Shown here in pieces: positions 1,330-5,731 of a DNA stretch of 5,731 bases. The notes under the pieces are model-generated. The model saw nothing but the letters and a program-made list of their open reading frames with translations. It made no database searches and had not been told where the DNA came from. The DNA is taken from positions 1-5,731 of the forward strand of contig VAXX01000385.1 of the NCBI GenBank assembly GCA_005885115.1. Direction: 5' to 3'. The position numbers and the translations under genes are program-made. Position 1 is the stretch's first letter. The number at the start of each line of letters is the position of its first letter. Source of the stretch: Actinomycetota bacterium. GTDB taxonomy: Bacteria > Actinomycetota > Actinomycetes > Mycobacteriales > Micromonosporaceae.

Positions 1330-1731
1330 TCATTCGTCGTAGAGGTCGAGGACCAGACCGGCCGGGACCGCGGCAAGGCGCTGCAGGACGTCCGCCGGAA
1401 ACCCGACGGTGCCCTGCCCGTCGGCGTGGGACAGGAAGCAGATCCAGTCGATTTCGCAGTGGTCGCTCAGCTTCCGCAGGGTCGGTAGCGTCGACTCGTC
1501 CTGGACCCGGGCGAGCAGCGAGGTCAGGTGGTCGACCAGCGGCCGATCGGGACTGATCCCGCTCTCGAGTATCCAGACCGACTGCTCATAGACCCGCGTC
1601 GAACGGCCGCCGACCGGCGAACCGGCCTCGAACGCCTCCGTCGGTGGTACGCCCAGGGCCGCGGAGATGTCGTCCGGGCGCAGCTCCCGACTCATGATCC
1701 GAATGCTGGCCCGGCTCAGTATGACCGCCAT
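1330..1731 (-). CDS. DUF4279 domain protein, last gene of the fluoride operon
   Basis: The 133-residue soluble protein matches the DUF4279 pattern. It has an N-terminal strand, then RELRPDDISAALGVPPTEAF, a Gly/Arg turn, a SVWILESGISPDRPLVDHL stretch, a leucine-rich helix (SLLARVQDE), a central strand (EIDWICFLSHADGQGTVGF) and the end segment VLQRLAAVPAGLVLDLYDE. ATG at 1731 is preceded by GGAGG with a six-base spacer, so the start is well supported. An in-frame ATG at residue 13 is a weaker alternative. The gene begins 11 bases after the stop of the second channel gene, on the same strand, so it is very likely in the same transcript. The biochemical role of DUF4279 is unknown to me. The link to fluoride is by context only. 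It converges on the upstream + strand gene with a 16-base gap and no visible terminator. Confidence 0.85.
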   Translation of the reverse strand: MAVILSRASIRIMSRELRPDDISAALGVPPTEAFEAGSPVGGRSTRVYEQSVWILESGISPDRPLVDHLTSLLARVQDESTLPTLRKLSDHCEIDWICFLSHADGQGTVGFPADVLQRLAAVPAGLVLDLYDE

Positions 1732-1742
1732 GGGAGCCCTCC

Positions 1743-2111
1743 TCAGCCGGCGAAAGCGGCGGCGACGGCCGCACCGAGGGCGGCCGCGCCCAGGCCAGCG
1801 ACGATGCTCGCCCCGACGTTCAGGACGGCGAAGAGCCGGGCCCGGTCCTGAAGCAGCCGTACCGTCTCGTAGCCGAAGGTGGAGTACGTGGTCAGCGCTC
1901 CGCACAGCCCGGTACCGAGAGCCGCGAGCACCGGCGCCGGGGTGTGCAGCGTCCCGGCGGCGAGCAGGCCGAGCAGGAACGACCCGACCACGTTGACCGC
2001 GAAGGTACCCCAGGGAAACAGCGAGTCGTGCCGACCCTGTACCGCCCGGTCGACCAGGTACCGCAGCGGAGCCCCCACCGCCGCGCCCAGCGCGACCAGC
2101 ACGACGGTCAC
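1743..2111 (-). CDS. crcB: Fluoride efflux channel subunit FluC/CrcB (second copy)
   Basis: This is a small four-helix membrane protein (122 residues) of the FluC/CrcB family, dual-topology dimers that let fluoride leave the cytoplasm. Family marks are the N-terminal GAxxRY segment (G13-Y18, GAPLRY), the [17 protein letters not shown] block (32-48) with the conserved Asn at 40, and the [17 protein letters not shown] block (66-82) that carries the central sodium site and the pore aromatic positions. The first pore aromatic is Tyr76 where Phe is usual, and the second is Phe79. The GTG start overlaps the stop of the DUF190 gene as GTGA, so translation is coupled. It sits two genes after another crcB copy, which suggests that the two form a heterodimer, as in other bacteria with paired genes. 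Confidence 0.92.
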
Positions 2112-2458
2112 GACCCGGCCTCGGGACTGCGGCCGACGTACCGGATGACCTCCACCGGGTCGATGATGACCAGTCCCTCCGCCACCAGCTCGTCGAGCTG
2201 GGGCAGGAAGGCACGGATCTTGTCCTCCGCGTCGACGATGATCACCGCCACCGGCAGGTCCTCGGACAGCGACAGCAGCCGGGTCGTGTGTATCCGCGAC
2301 GACGCCCCGTACCCCTCGACGCCCCGCAGCACCGACGCGCCGGCCAGGCCGCTCTTGTGGGCGCGGTGCACGATCTCGGTGAATAACGGCTTGTGGTGCC
2401 ACTGGTCGTCCTCGCCGACGAAGATCGTCAGGCGCAGCGCCGGGCCTTCGATTCTCAT
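2108..2458 (-). CDS. DUF190 (PII-like) protein between the two fluoride channel genes
   Basis: The 116-residue soluble protein fits DUF190, a family with a ferredoxin-like fold resembling PII signal proteins. Typical stretches are [20 protein letters not shown] (9-28), the helix and turn [23 protein letters not shown] (29-51), the strand [14 protein letters not shown] (68-81) and the closing helix and strand [24 protein letters not shown] at 2458 overlaps the stop of the first channel gene as ATGA, and the gene's own stop overlaps the next GTG, so all three are translated as a block. DUF190 genes commonly lie beside crcB genes. A role in sensing or modulating the channel is a reasonable guess, but the ligand is not known. 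Confidence 0.9.
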
Positions 2459-2937
2459 CCCGTGGTCTCCTTGCGATGGCGGATGCGGGAGGTCAGCAGC
2501 CGGGTCGCACTCACCCCGGCGTACGTGGCGGTGAGCGCGGCGAGCACCGTGGCGGCGAGGTACACCAGGGCGGTACGGGCCGCCCCGGCGATGGCCAGGT
2601 GCTGGACATCGACGACGTACGGCGAGAAGGTCGTGTACCCGCCCAGCACCCCGGTACCGAGGAACGGCCGGAGCAGCCGCCGGGTCGGCCACACGTCGGC
2701 GACGAGCACCATCAGCACGCCGATGAGCAGGCAACCGGAGACGTTGATGCCGAAGGTCGCCCACGGGAACCCGGCGGCGGGGTGCGGGTACGCCTGGCCC
2801 AGGGCGTACCGGCCGAGGGCCCCGATGATGCCGCCGGCCGAGACCGCGCCGAGAACCGGCCACGGCAGGCCGGCCCGGGACCGCCGGGCGCCGGCGAAGG
2901 GGGACGTGCTGGTCAGATCAGCTCGGGTATCGGCCAC
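2455..2937 (-). CDS. crcB: Fluoride efflux channel subunit FluC/CrcB (first copy)
   Basis: This is the first gene of the operon and a FluC/CrcB fluoride channel subunit of 160 residues, longer than its partner because of a polar N-terminal extension of about 25 residues. Family blocks are [10 protein letters not shown] (36-45), [17 protein letters not shown] (57-73, with the conserved Asn at 65 but Ala in place of the usual Gly before Thr), and [17 protein letters not shown] (94-110). The usual TTFSTF pore motif is TTFSPY here, so the second aromatic is Tyr107. I chose GTG at 2937 over GTG at 2943 because AGGAG (2949-2945) lies seven bases before the former and only one before the latter. The ribosome site is part of a hairpin that competes with the upstream riboswitch. 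The stop overlaps the DUF190 start by four bases. Confidence 0.92.
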
Positions 2938-2943
2938 GGGCAC

Positions 2944-3021
2944 ACTCCTACCAAGGACTCTGGTAGGGACCGTTGGCGGGTACGCCCGCGGTTTCCGTCC
3001 GGACGGCGGGCCCCACCGCCG
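2944..3021 (-). promoter_or_regulatory. Variant fluoride (crcB) riboswitch with translational expression platform
   Basis: The minus-strand leader of the channel operon aligns to the fluoride aptamer. P1 is CGGCG (3021-3017) with CGCCG (3008-3004), closing an eight-base loop GUGGGGCC. The same loop in the well-studied Thermotoga aptamer is AUGAGGCC. AAAC (2994-2991) leads into P2, GCGGG (2989-2985) with CCCGC (2980-2976) and a CGUA loop. Then come CAACG and GGUCCCUAC. GGUCCC (2971-2966) pairs with loop GGGGCC (3014-3009) as a six-pair pseudoknot with one G-U, and CUAC carries the linchpin U. The two GAUG elements are changed (GGUG and CAACG). Downstream, CCUACCA (2967-2961) can pair perfectly with UGGUAGG (2953-2947), which holds the ribosome site of crcB, so fluoride binding should free translation. 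The fold was found by eye, not by a covariance model. Confidence 0.7.
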
Positions 3022-3653: not shown

Positions 3654-3881
3654 TTACCCGCGGCTCCAGTGCTCGTTGCCGCCGGAGTTGCAGGTCCACA
3701 GGATCAGCTTGGACCCGCTGGCCGTCGCCGCGTTCAGCACGGTCACGCACTTGCCCGACTGGCTACCGCGGATGGTGCCGTCGGACTGGAACGAGAACTG
3801 CTGGTTCGCGCCGCCGTTGCAGCTCCAGACCTCCACGATCGTCCCGTTGGCCGTCGCGCCGCCCGGCGCGTCGATGCTGGC
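3654..3881 (-). pseudogene. Out-of-frame remainder of the chitosanase lectin domain (CBM13)
   Basis: The frame ending at TAA 3654 encodes about 75 residues that continue a ricin-type beta-trefoil lectin: IDAPGGATANGTIVEVWSC, then NGGANQQFSFQSDGTIRG, then a GKCVTVLN repeat and a final ILWTCNSGGNEHW. It has no start or ribosome site of its own. It belongs to the chitosanase just upstream, whose lectin domain reads correctly as far as STCNGGASQ in another frame. The junction is near 3876-3881. About 15-20 residues that normally lie between these pieces (a QW...GKC segment) are absent, so this is an internal loss that also shifted the frame, not a single-base slip. An assembly error cannot be excluded. 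Confidence 0.8.
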
Positions 3882-4815
3882 TCGCGCCGCCGTTGCAGGT
3901 CGAAATCTGCAGCTGGGTGCCGTTGGTGGTGCTGCCGTTGGGGTCGTCCATGCACTTGCCGGAGCCGACGCCGATGAACCGGTTCCCACCGCCACCCCCG
4001 CCGCCCGACGGGGTCGGGGTCGGGGTCGGCGTAGGCGTACCGCTGCCACCCAGACCCATGCTATTGCCGAGGCTGTCCAGAGCCTTCTGAACCATGGCCT
4101 GGGCGTTGTTGTTCAGGGTGGAGTTGGTGCCGTTCACGACCCAGGACGAGCCAGAGAAGATCGTCACGGTCACCCCGTTGTCAACACCACCGGTGGTGCC
4201 GCTGCTGTTGATGCCCAGCAGCGAGGCCGCCTTCACGGACGCCTCGCCCAGCTCGCGGGAGTCGTTCTCCGACGTGGTCTGGCTGTTCCCGGTCTGCGTG
4301 TCACCGAAGATCGCACCGATGACCCTGCCCTTGTAGAACATCAGCGCGAACTGCCGACCCGAGATCCCGTGCTCCTTGTAGAAGAAGTGCGGGCAGGGGG
4401 ACCTGCGGTCCCAGCAGTCGTCACCCAGCACGTAGAACGGCACGTGGGACGCGCCCAGGTACCTGCCGTCGCTGGTCTTGAACGTCGTCTGGTTCTGGTG
4501 ATCGGGATCGGGGTTCGGGTCGCTGCCGTCATCGTCCACGGCCAGGCTGGAGCTGTAGGCGTAGACGCCCGGCGCCACCTGGTACACGTTGACGTTCATG
4601 GCCCGCGTCATCGTGTTGATGTGCGGCTTGGAGTTGACCTGCTTCGAGGACTTCATGTTCTTCTGGATGCCAGCCAGCACCTGCGCGGCCGTGTACTGGC
4701 CGGACGCCTGCGGGGTGGTGGTCGAGGCGTTGGCGCCGTGGTTCAAGACCAGCGGAGTGACCGCCGCCAGGCTGCCCACCGCGACGAGACTAAGTACCTT
4801 GCGCGAGATCTTCAC
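3763..4815 (-). CDS. Secreted GH75 chitosanase with a broken C-terminal lectin domain
   Basis: This is predicted to be an extracellular endo-chitosanase of glycoside hydrolase family 75, cutting beta-1,4 links in chitosan. The order is: signal peptide (1-30, KISRK, a hydrophobic core and an ANA-STT cleavage site); GH75 domain (about 40-230); Pro-Thr then Gly linker (260-277); start of a CBM13 lectin (279-313). The GH75 signature is seen in YQVAPGVYAYSSSLAVDDDG, a DGRYLGASHVPFYVLG stretch, two cysteines (134, 141), and the catalytic region IFGDT (D172) with LGEAS (E191), the usual acid pair. From residue 314 the frame is wrong and Arg-rich to TAG at 3763, while the real lectin continues in another frame. 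GTG at 4815 has GGGGAG eight bases upstream. Catalysis may survive, but carbohydrate binding probably does not. Upstream are a consensus -35 and a direct repeat, suggesting regulated expression. Confidence 0.88.
   Translation of the reverse strand: MKISRKVLSLVAVGSLAAVTPLVLNHGANASTTTPQASGQYTAAQVLAGIQKNMKSSKQVNSKPHINTMTRAMNVNVYQVAPGVYAYSSSLAVDDDGSDPNPDPDHQNQTTFKTSDGRYLGASHVPFYVLGDDCWDRRSPCPHFFYKEHGISGRQFALMFYKGRVIGAIFGDTQTGNSQTTSENDSRELGEASVKAASLLGINSSGTTGGVDNGVTVTIFSGSSWVVNGTNSTLNNNAQAMVQKALDSLGNSMGLGGSGTPTPTPTPTPSGGGGGGGNRFIGVGSGKCMDDPNGSTTNGTQLQISTCNGGASQHRRAGRRDGQRDDRGGLELQRRREPAVLVPVRRHHPR
4010..4039 (-). repeat. Hexamer repeat encoding the Pro-Thr linker
   Basis: On the + strand this is GGGGTC repeated three times, followed by degenerate units (GGCGTA). 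It encodes the alternating Pro-Thr linker between the GH75 domain and the lectin, next to a run of seven Gly codons. Slipped-strand length change here would alter linker length. Confidence 0.75.
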
Positions 4816-5053: not shown

Positions 5054-5629
5054 CCTGGGCCTTGTTCAGCTCCCGCCCGTGTACACCCCGTGCCGCCGTA
5101 CCGTCGGCCGGCGCCGTGGAGCGCAGCCCGTACCGGCGCTCCATGTCCAGCACCGCAACACGTACCCGGCGGGTAGTCGTTGCGCGCCCACTCGGTACGC
5201 CCGTCCTGCCGGACCAGTGTGGCGGCGATGTAGACGTGATCGTCGCGTGGCGGACGGCCACCCACCGGATCGCGCGTCGTCCCGACGCCGGGCGAGACCG
5301 GCCTGGGCCATGATCTCCCGCGCGATGTGGTCCCACTGCGCGTCGCTCAGCGTCCGGTCGCCGGGCGCGAGCCGCAGCGAGCAGTGCCACACCGGCTTGC
5401 GCGGCGTACGGAACGCGGCACGCAGCGGATCTTCCAGCATCGCCACCAGCGCCCGCACGTCCCGCCGGCCGTTGGCGGCAGCCGGCGGCTCCAACCCGCC
5501 CAGGTCACCGGCGCCCTCCGACGGCGGAGACCAGGCGCCGCCGTATGTGGTCCTCCCTGCGGCCCGGGCCGAACAGGGTACGCCAGCAACCCGCCGATCC
5601 GTACCGCGCGGATGGATCCGGGCGATCAC
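5054..5629 (-). pseudogene. Decayed relaxase (mobilization nuclease) gene
   Basis: In three changing frames the strand encodes pieces of an actinomycete plasmid/ICE relaxase, the enzyme that nicks DNA at oriT and pilots the strand. The order is: VIARIHPRGTD, GLLAY, LFGPGRREDH, then RDVRALVAMLEDPLRAAF, PRKPVWHCSLRLAPGDRTLS, DAQWDHIAREIMAQAGLA, WVAVRHA, DDHVYIAATLVRQDGR, and VLDMERRYGLRSTAPADGTA ending in GRELNKAQ. Frame changes are near 5596, 5577 (one extra C), 5540-5550, 5285, 5244 (one G missing) and 5170. The metal-site block normally reads like HADDHVH, and here the last His is Tyr. The GTG start at 5629 overlaps the MobC-like stop. The 3' part, normally a few hundred residues more, is gone and replaced by the tRNA fragment. 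It is not functional. Confidence 0.85.
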
Positions 5630-5731
5630 CACGGTAGCTCGCGACGGACCTGCGCGACCGCCTCGTCAACCCGCTCGACCGCCCGCCGGCATACGGCGAC
5701 CGCCTCACCCAGCCACGCGCTGGCATGTAGC
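5626..5731 (-). CDS. C-terminal end of a MobC-like mobilization protein, cut by the window
   Basis: The last 34 residues are visible: SAWLGEAVAVCRRAVERVDE then AVAQVRRELPW and TGA. This is a charged amphipathic helix of the kind that ends MobC proteins, relaxosome accessory factors that help the relaxase open oriT. The stop overlaps the relaxase GTG as GTGA, the usual mobC-relaxase arrangement. The start lies beyond the window edge. With so little sequence the family call leans on this neighbour, and whether the rest is intact cannot be told. Confidence 0.6.
   Translation of the reverse strand, partial: LHASAWLGEAVAVCRRAVERVDEAVAQVRRELPW

What the first reader, a model, noticed from the sequence alone, without database searches (positions are those of the whole stretch)
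2961..3021. Fluoride riboswitch with altered ligand-site residues
P1, the 8-base loop, AAAC, P2, the pseudoknot strand and CUAC all align with the Thermotoga fluoride aptamer, in the right place before crcB. The normally near-invariant GAUG in the loop is GGUG, and the UGAUG after P2 is CAACG. Mapped on the aptamer, the reverse pair A6-U38 becomes G-C while the A40-U48 linchpin is kept, so the change looks compensated. There is also a longer joint between P1 and AAAC with a self-complementary CCGUCCGGACGG (overlapping the P1 3' arm). This could be a natural variant with changed affinity or a form missed by standard models.
Basis: partly seen in the sequence, partly recalled or inferred. Interest (0 to 1): 0.75.

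Follow-up and report, generated by a model that had tools for sequence, protein, structure and literature searches.

The report
Overlooked fluoride riboswitch variant in actinobacteria
Before fluoride-channel genes in many actinobacteria lies an RNA built like the known fluoride-sensing switch but with a matched pair of letters swapped at its binding site; the standard model scored every copy tested below its cut-off, and the RNA is likely a working fluoride switch that would turn on translation of the channel gene.

Summary
Minus strand 3021-2945 holds a fluoride-aptamer architecture with G6-C38 instead of the reverse Watson-Crick A6-U38 pair and the A40-U48 linchpin kept. Rfam RF01734 gives 20.2 bits (cut-off 34). 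It is no private oddity: of 267 distinct actinobacterial aptamers, 143 have G6-C38, 120 A6-U38, only 4 are mixed. A second swap travels with it: U41/C44 becomes C41/U44 (259 of 267 are one or the other), residues that NMR work places in contact. The G-C form precedes crcB in 128 of 143 cases. None of 49 G-C loci tested reaches Rfam's cut-off. The aptamer's 3' end also pairs with the Shine-Dalgarno region, so the likely mechanism is a translational ON switch: fluoride locks pseudoknot and linchpin and frees the ribosome site. Caveats: on a CrcB tree the swap needs only 3 changes (1 on well supported branches), so it is largely one inherited shift; fluoride binding is untested; key subscription papers could not be read. 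Verdict: a real, widespread variant of a known riboswitch, missed by the standard model.

The parts
3005..3021 (-). P1 hairpin: 5' arm 3017-3020 (GGCG), 8-nt loop 3009-3016 (GUGGGGCC; G6 at 3016, U7 3015, G8 3014, G11 3011), 3' arm 3005-3008 (CGCC); a fifth pair C3021-G3004 is U-A in L013
   Evidence: the four P1 pairs are formed in 35 of 35 rows of A5
2994..3004 (-). J1/2 insert with a small hairpin UCC/GGA (3003-3001 with 2996-2994, loop GGAC)
   Evidence: 128 of 143 G-C rows could be parsed; of the 66 with J1/2 of 10 nt or more, 66 have a stem of at least 3 bp and 64 of at least 4 bp (the window has 3), against a mean of 21 for at least 4 bp in shuffles
2976..2993 (-). AAC (2993-2991), C2990, and the second stem (P2, called P3 in some papers): 2989-2985 with 2980-2976, loop CGUA
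   Evidence: the stem varies with compensation in A5
2971..2975 (-). CAACG, positions 38-42: C38 2975 (partner of G6 3016), A39 2974, A40 2973 (linchpin), C41 2972, G42 2971
   Evidence: 6-38 is G-C in 143, A-U in 120 of 267 aptamers
2966..2971 (-). 3' strand of the pseudoknot: G42-G43-U44-C45-C46-C47 pairs with C13-C12-G11-G10-G9-G8 (3009-3014), with a G11-U44 wobble
   Evidence: G11-U44 in 139 of 143 G-C aptamers
2963..2965 (-). U48 (2965, linchpin partner of A40), A49 and C50
   Evidence: A40 and U48 were required by the filter; 5 of 272 distinct rows failed it or the pseudoknot test
2947..2967 (-). Predicted expression platform: hairpin 2967-2960 (CCUACCAG) with 2954-2947 (UUGGUAGG), which uses C46, C47 and U48 and covers part of the Shine-Dalgarno sequence
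   Evidence: fold of this stretch; helix of at least 7 bp in 124 of 143 G-C leaders against 59.3 with swapped partners
2945..2948 (-). Shine-Dalgarno GGAG, 7 nt before GTG 2937-2935, the likelier start of crcB; the ORF list begins at GTG 2943
   Evidence: sequence
2455..2943 (-). first CrcB (fluoride channel family) gene
   Evidence: PF02537, 85.4 bits, cut-off 32.9
2108..2458 (-). DUF190 gene, start overlaps the end of the first crcB
   Evidence: PF02641, 132.1 bits; start read from the sequence
1743..2111 (-). second CrcB gene, start overlaps the end of DUF190
   Evidence: PF02537, 94.5 bits; start read from the sequence

Best explanation
The leader of the crcB-DUF190-crcB operon carries a fluoride-riboswitch-type aptamer in which the reverse Watson-Crick A6-U38 pair is replaced by G6 and C38, and it likely works as a fluoride-induced ON switch of translation. 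Shown by sequence and comparison: the aptamer architecture, the swap at 6/38, the coupled swap at 41/44, the kept linchpin residues, the position before crcB, and complementarity of the aptamer's 3' end to the Shine-Dalgarno region. Inferred: without fluoride the stretch 46-53 pairs with the Shine-Dalgarno region and the channel is hardly translated; with fluoride and Mg2+ the aptamer docks, positions 45-47 stay in the pseudoknot and U48 stays with A40, so the hairpin cannot form and ribosomes load. G6-C38 is expected to form the same trans Watson-Crick pair (as the Levitt pair of tRNA does). Because the ligand is held by Mg2+ ions on backbone phosphates (recalled from the crystal-structure literature; passages of PMC11586693 speak of Mg2+, fluoride, phosphate and water), base identity at 6, 38 and 41 could change without losing the pocket.
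For: Rfam aligns its full fluoride model end to end with no broken pair. Same form before crcB in five other genera at once. 267 distinct aptamers: 6-38 G-C 143, A-U 120, A-C 2, G-U 1, C-C 1, aligned with a model that has no pairing between these columns. 41/44: C-U 145, U-C 114, others 8; NMR in Bacillus cereus puts these residues in contact (PMC8004769 passages; U38/C41 there equal 41/44 here, offset 3). Intermediates exist: 5 A6-U38 with C41, 3 G6-C38 with U41. CrcB downstream of 128 of 143 G-C aptamers (one more, L395:7361, by Pfam) and of 109 of 122 pattern matches in named genomes. Other genes behind G-C aptamers include MutS_V, MFS and Nudix proteins, of which mutS is a known crcB-motif gene (PMC2864571 passage). 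The G-C set keeps pseudoknot pairs 9-46 as GC in 143 of 143 and 10-45 as GC in 141 of 143, and a G11-U44 wobble in 139 of 143, which G+C drift would not produce. Shine-Dalgarno pairing of 7 bp or more in 124 of 143 versus 59.3 swapped.
Against: Few independent events: on a quick tree of 160 CrcB proteins (with warnings of long branches) the swap needs 3 changes, 1 forced by well supported branches, and the independent-pairs test has 1 supported pair (3 on all branches), too few for significance. 84 of the 143 G-C aptamers come from the window's own family, so part of their uniformity is kinship. U41 is replaced by C in 140 of 143; U41A abolishes the response in B. cereus (PMC11077080 passages), and C has no imino proton for the contact seen by NMR. 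The isolated G:C trans pair is called a rather unstable geometry (PMC3902895 abstract; passages). A minimum-energy fold of the window's 99-nt leader prefers a non-aptamer structure (pseudoknots are not modelled). No fluoride data for any G-C member were found.
Confidence: 0.78

Rival explanations
1. A refinement rather than a full rival: the G-C/C41/U44 set is an adaptation that shifts affinity or kinetics and so sets the switch point of the channel operon, while A-U copies serve other genes.
For: G-C copies are mostly with crcB (128 of 143), A-U copies less so (37 of 120); both forms sit on one contig: G279:C188 has six G-C and two A-U aptamers.
Against: The two sets also differ in lineage, so gene preference may only reflect ancestry; flank lengths searched for CrcB differed between loci. 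No binding data.
Confidence: 0.35
2. An orphan relative that keeps the fold but senses another small anion or Mg2+ itself.
For: The changed residues 6, 38 and 41 lie at or next to the ligand site.
Against: The genes are of the fluoride set (CrcB, MutS type, MFS), and linchpin and pseudoknot are kept.
Confidence: 0.06
3. Decayed aptamer drifting under high G+C pressure; the leader now acts only as a Shine-Dalgarno hairpin.
For: A-U to G-C is the direction expected in G+C-rich genomes; the swap is mostly one inherited event.
Against: Conservation of loop and pseudoknot letters, a conserved G11-U44 wobble (139 of 143) and the C41/U44 coupling go against drift; P1, the second stem and the pseudoknot still covary in a set of both forms.
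Confidence: 0.05
4. Chance resemblance in G+C-rich sequence.
For: Sub-threshold Rfam score; R1 hits below about 35 bits are mostly in unrelated sequence.
Against: Over a hundred recurrences at the same place before crcB.
Confidence: 0.01

Closest known systems
Fluoride riboswitch aptamer, crcB motif (Rfam RF01734), A6-U38 form
   Same: P1, 8-nt loop, AAC, second stem, H-type pseudoknot, A40-U48, CUAC-like end, crcB/mutS context
   Different: A6 to G, U38 to C, U41 to C, C44 to U (G11-U44), G39 mostly A; 16.7-25.7 bits where listed, cut-off 34
Translational fluoride riboswitches (Burkholderia pseudomallei and Pseudomonas syringae, used as translational controls in PMC13273304; passages)
   Same: expected control of translation rather than of termination
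   Different: other aptamer letters; here the predicted partner of the Shine-Dalgarno region is the pseudoknot/linchpin strand itself (46-53). The platforms of those two were not compared here
Levitt pair of tRNA (trans Watson-Crick G-C; PMC3902895 abstract and passages)
   Same: a long-range trans Watson-Crick purine-pyrimidine pair; the A15-U48 alternative in tRNA is recalled, not read here
   Different: in tRNA it joins distant loops; here it would border a Mg2+/fluoride site

Membership tests
Fluoride riboswitch (RF01734) | score at or above the curated gathering cut-off (34 bits) | tested here: not met
   window 20.2 bits; 0 of 49 G-C loci (window, 20, 8 and 20), best 25.7; 29 of the 49 are not listed at the E limits used
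Fluoride riboswitch (RF01734) | P1 with 8-nt loop, AAC joint, second stem and H-type pseudoknot | tested here: met
   alignment; 99.5% of 558 cells paired in A5, 8 of 16 pairs with changes on both sides (A5 holds both forms)
Fluoride riboswitch (RF01734) | near-invariant GAUG in L1 and UGAUG after the second stem | tested here: not met
   GGUG and CAACG; same in relatives
Fluoride riboswitch (RF01734) | long-range 6-38 pair able to form (reversed Watson-Crick A-U in the crystal, PMC11586693 passages) | tested here: inconclusive
   compensated G-C in 143 of 267, but only 1-3 independent switches and no structure
Fluoride riboswitch (RF01734) | linchpin A40-U48 | tested here: met
   both residues kept in the window; 267 of 272 distinct rows passed the filter for them and the pseudoknot
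Fluoride riboswitch (RF01734) | U41, which contacts positions 43 and 44 | tested here: not met
   C41 in the window and in 140 of 143 G-C aptamers; contact taken from PMC8004769 passages
Fluoride riboswitch (RF01734) | genes of fluoride defence downstream | tested here: met
   CrcB twice and DUF190; CrcB behind 128 of 143 G-C aptamers
Fluoride riboswitch (RF01734) | selective fluoride binding with Mg2+ | not testable with these tools
   needs probing or calorimetry
Fluoride riboswitch (RF01734) | expression platform that excludes the docked aptamer | tested here: met
   by prediction only: the hairpin shares 46-48 with pseudoknot and linchpin; pairing kept in 124 of 143

The most novel reading that the evidence does not exclude
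The coupled C41/U44 swap makes a pH-gated fluoride sensor: C41 can give the hydrogen bond that U41 gives only when protonated at N3, so the actinobacterial aptamer would bind fluoride best in acidified cytoplasm, exactly when HF enters, and G6-C38 would be the compensating strut. That would be a riboswitch reading fluoride and protons together.
Probability: 0.08. Interest if true: 0.85.

Novelty: new variant of a known kind. Interest (0 to 1): 0.62.

Why it matters
It gives natural sequence exchange at a tertiary ligand-site pair of the fluoride riboswitch; a recent analysis names P1, pseudoknot and P3 as the covarying regions of the Rfam motif (PMC13273304 section 33). It reveals a second coupled pair, 41/44. 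And counts such as 'only about 15% of Flucs are regulated by riboswitches' (PMC11139923 passages) may be too low if they rest on the standard model: in one 396-genome sample RF01734 passes its cut-off in 68 genomes and has no match at E 0.01 in any of the five f18 genomes in which R1 finds the G-C form, nor in the window's own. The variant is a natural multiple mutant with which to test how much of the pocket is base identity and how much backbone.

Tried and rejected
Fluorinase link: seven R1 matches in G279 suggested a fluorometabolite cluster, but the only SAM_HAT_N match of that genome lies on another contig, and 6 of 7 genomes tested have one. Rejected.

Own-genome scan with RF01734 did not list the window's site, presumably because only 150 of 302 candidates were scored; not taken as evidence of absence.

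R1 hits of about 26-35 bits were inspected and mostly lie in unrelated sequence without crcB; L072:4734 and L073 are exceptions that look real. In the 267-row set I dropped 10 duplicates, 8 rows with odd loops or ends and 5 rows failing the A40/U48/pseudoknot filter. One of the four mixed rows (C-C, L375:1686) is probably not an aptamer but was kept in the count.

A first scanner set (171 rows, duplicates and chance rows included) and its relaxed version (many chance rows) were replaced by the model-based alignment. Alignment A4 misaligned the joint and was not used.

Alternative pseudoknot register with bulged U44 (G9-C47, G10-C46, G11-C45, G8-U48): not excluded by pairing alone, but it would use up the linchpin residue U48. 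Not computed.

Plasmid search with the first CrcB: 56 records with a match, not followed.

Literature: searches showed no description of a G6-C38 form in the listings and passages that I saw. Seen as passages, sections or abstracts, none read whole: PMC13273304, PMC10687018, PMC8752731, PMC11586693, PMC11077080, PMC2864571, PMC3902895, PMC9495176, PMC11139923, PMC7657543, PMC8004769, PMC6429828. The discovery, crystal-structure and variant-riboswitch papers (the last recalled) are subscription papers that I did not look up; the Streptomyces cattleya regulation paper was tried and is not held. No supplement was read. Priority is therefore not established.

Full report
Observation. On the minus strand, 3021-2945, just before a crcB-DUF190-crcB operon, lies a sequence that Rfam's fluoride model aligns end to end with no broken pair, but at 20.2 bits against a cut-off of 34. 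Two further points were missed: position 41 is C (2972) and position 44 is U (2969), the latter making a G11-U44 wobble in the pseudoknot.

Not a private mutation. A nucleotide search of 61 genomes, the window's own included (all 61 gave some match at E up to 1; only the best ones matter), led to the same core before crcB in four other genera of the window's family and in one genome of another family of the order. A covariance model of these six (R1) matches 91 of 354 genomes of the family at E 0.01 or less, 83 of them at E below 1e-5 by my count of the table (strict filters, so lower bounds). In a phylum sample it matches 12 of 396 genomes at E 0.001 or less: the window's own, five of family code f18 that carry the G-C form, and six weak ones, two of which (L154, L156) are A-U forms. 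In the same sample RF01734 matches 99 genomes at E 0.01, 68 over its cut-off, but not the window's own nor those five. A lineage look-up puts 119 of the 120 in Actinomycetota; the other carries the title Kocuria, an actinobacterial genus (recalled). They span Streptomyces, Nocardioides, Brevibacterium, Actinomadura, Kribbella, Amycolatopsis, Nocardia, Mycobacterium, Rothia, Jiangella and more. Of 122 matches in these, 109 have a CrcB-like frame within 700 nt downstream; of the 13 without, two have under 130 nt of flank and four are in Mycobacterium records. Whether the form exists outside actinobacteria was not searched with the models.

Two-state exchange. To avoid a model that favours one form, I built R2 from 35 aptamers of both forms, with columns 6 and 38 unpaired. 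In those 35 the tertiary pair is A-U 21, G-C 14, none mixed, and the whole structure (P1, pseudoknot, second stem, linchpin, 6-38) pairs in 99.5% of 558 cells with 8 of 16 pairs changed on both sides. R2 matches 141 of 384 class genomes at E 0.001 or less, 61 of them at E below 1e-8 by my count; the weaker ones I did not follow, apart from a few. Aligning R2 matches from 88, 88 and 68 loci (94, 106 and 90 rows) and removing 8 odd rows, 10 duplicates and 5 rows failing the A40/U48/pseudoknot test leaves 267 distinct aptamers: G6-C38 143, A6-U38 120, A-C 2, G-U 1, C-C 1. Positions 41/44 behave the same way: C41/U44 145, U41/C44 114, 8 others. The two swaps nearly coincide; the exceptions are five A6-U38 aptamers with C41 and three G6-C38 aptamers with U41, which look like intermediates. 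The 267 are not a random sample: they came from three searches seeded with one form or both, the seeds are included, and 84 of the 143 G-C rows come from the window's own family.

How strong is this. Shuffle counts ignore ancestry. On a quick tree of 160 CrcB proteins, with several long branches flagged, the 6-38 state needs 3 changes (1 forced by well supported branches; 29.6 for shuffled labels), and only 1 supported or 3 total independent pairs exist, too few for a test. So the G-C form among crcB leaders is mostly one inherited shift. What argues that both partners moved under constraint is the rarity of mixed forms, the presence of both forms in one genome (G279:C188 holds six G-C and two A-U aptamers; also L072 and L395), and the conservation of the rest.

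Why the change can be tolerated. The 6-38 pair is a reversed Watson-Crick pair and A40-U48 a reversed Hoogsteen pair in the crystal (PMC11586693 passages). A trans Watson-Crick G-C is a known long-range strut, the Levitt pair of tRNA; it is weak alone but helped by divalent metal at guanine N7 or by clamping contacts (PMC3902895 abstract and passages), and a Mg2+ cluster is close by. NMR work assigns contacts of U41 (imino and 2'-OH) to positions 43 and 44 (U38, A40, C41 in that paper; PMC8004769 passages; the offset of 3 follows from PMC8752731). Thus the second swap, 41/44, also joins two touching residues. Since C lacks that imino proton, the contact must be different or need protonation; U41A kills the response of the B. 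cereus switch (PMC11077080 passages), but I saw no test of U41C. A wobble in the pseudoknot was found critical for switching in that study, at another position (13-42 here); the G-C form mostly has C13-G42 (111 of 143) and carries a wobble at 11-44 (139 of 143). That this wobble takes over the role is a guess.

Mechanism. The stretch 46-53 (CCUACCAG, 2967-2960) is predicted to pair with UUGGUAGG (2954-2947), which overlaps the Shine-Dalgarno GGAG (2948-2945) of crcB. Docked aptamer and this hairpin cannot coexist because C46, C47 and U48 are shared. Of 143 G-C leaders 124 can form such a helix of 7 bp or more with their own downstream sequence, against 59.3 with partners swapped among leaders; compensated versions occur (CCUGCAG/CUGCAGG, CCUACUC/GAGUAGG, CCCUGUCUC/GAGAUAGGG). 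For A-U leaders it is 71 of 120 against 32.4. G-U pairs count in these helices. This supports a fluoride-ON translational switch; it is inference, not experiment. A whole-leader energy fold without pseudoknots prefers another structure.

J1/2. Of 143 G-C rows 128 could be parsed; the 66 with a long joint all have a stem there, 64 of 66 with 4 bp or more against 21 in shuffles; in the window it is reduced to UCC/GGA. G-C forms outside the family have a 3- or 7-nt joint in 43 of 53 parsed rows, so the insert is a lineage ornament, not a requirement.

Ligand. CrcB follows 128 of 143 G-C aptamers and 37 of 120 A-U ones; the flank searched varied between loci, so these are lower bounds. Among the G-C aptamers without a CrcB hit, genes examined behind nine encode NUDIX, MFS (twice), dynamin-type GTPase (twice), DUF4129, MutS_V, UPF0014 and BacA domains; a tenth, L395:7452, is CrcB by Pfam. 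mutS is on the original crcB-motif list (PMC2864571 passage). Fluoride is therefore by far the likeliest ligand; affinity may differ.

Classification. It fails the curated cut-off and the near-invariant letters, so I file it as a variant form beside, not within, RF01734 as now defined; it very likely works like a fluoride riboswitch. None of 49 G-C loci tested passes the cut-off (window; 2 of 20 listed at E 1 or less; 4 of 8 at E 1 or less; 13 of 20 at E 10 or less).

Noticed in passing
L069:1-20000 and L070:1-11291 (G279:C188): A 31-kb contig with eight fluoride-type aptamers (six G6-C38, two A6-U38) and crcB-DUF190-crcB, MFS, dynamin-type GTPase, UPF0014, BacA and DUF4129 genes: looks like a fluoride-defence island.
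   Followed up: partly
L395, L398, L399 (both forms); L394 (A-U only): Similar clusters of several aptamers within about 5-15 kb in other genomes; a dynamin-type GTPase recurs behind G-C aptamers (L069, L408).
   Followed up: partly
   Followed up: yes
L386, L388, L398:552, L399:10182, L070:2932, L072:4145: Six of 143 G6-C38 aptamers have U7 replaced by A.
   Followed up: no
window 1330-1731, minus: DUF4279 gene directly behind the second crcB on the same strand; may belong to the operon.
   Followed up: no
window 3654-4815, minus: GH75 chitosanase with a ricin-type lectin tail; the lectin-like end seems to continue in another reading frame (ORFs 3763-4815 and 3654-4049): possible frameshift or assembly error.
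   Followed up: no
window 5066-5632, minus: Relaxase-like match below the Pfam cut-off (20.3 of 24.6 bits).
   Followed up: no
L281, L283, L336 (Mycobacterium records) and L241: G-C aptamer-like elements without a CrcB frame in the flank searched; their target genes were not identified.
   Followed up: no
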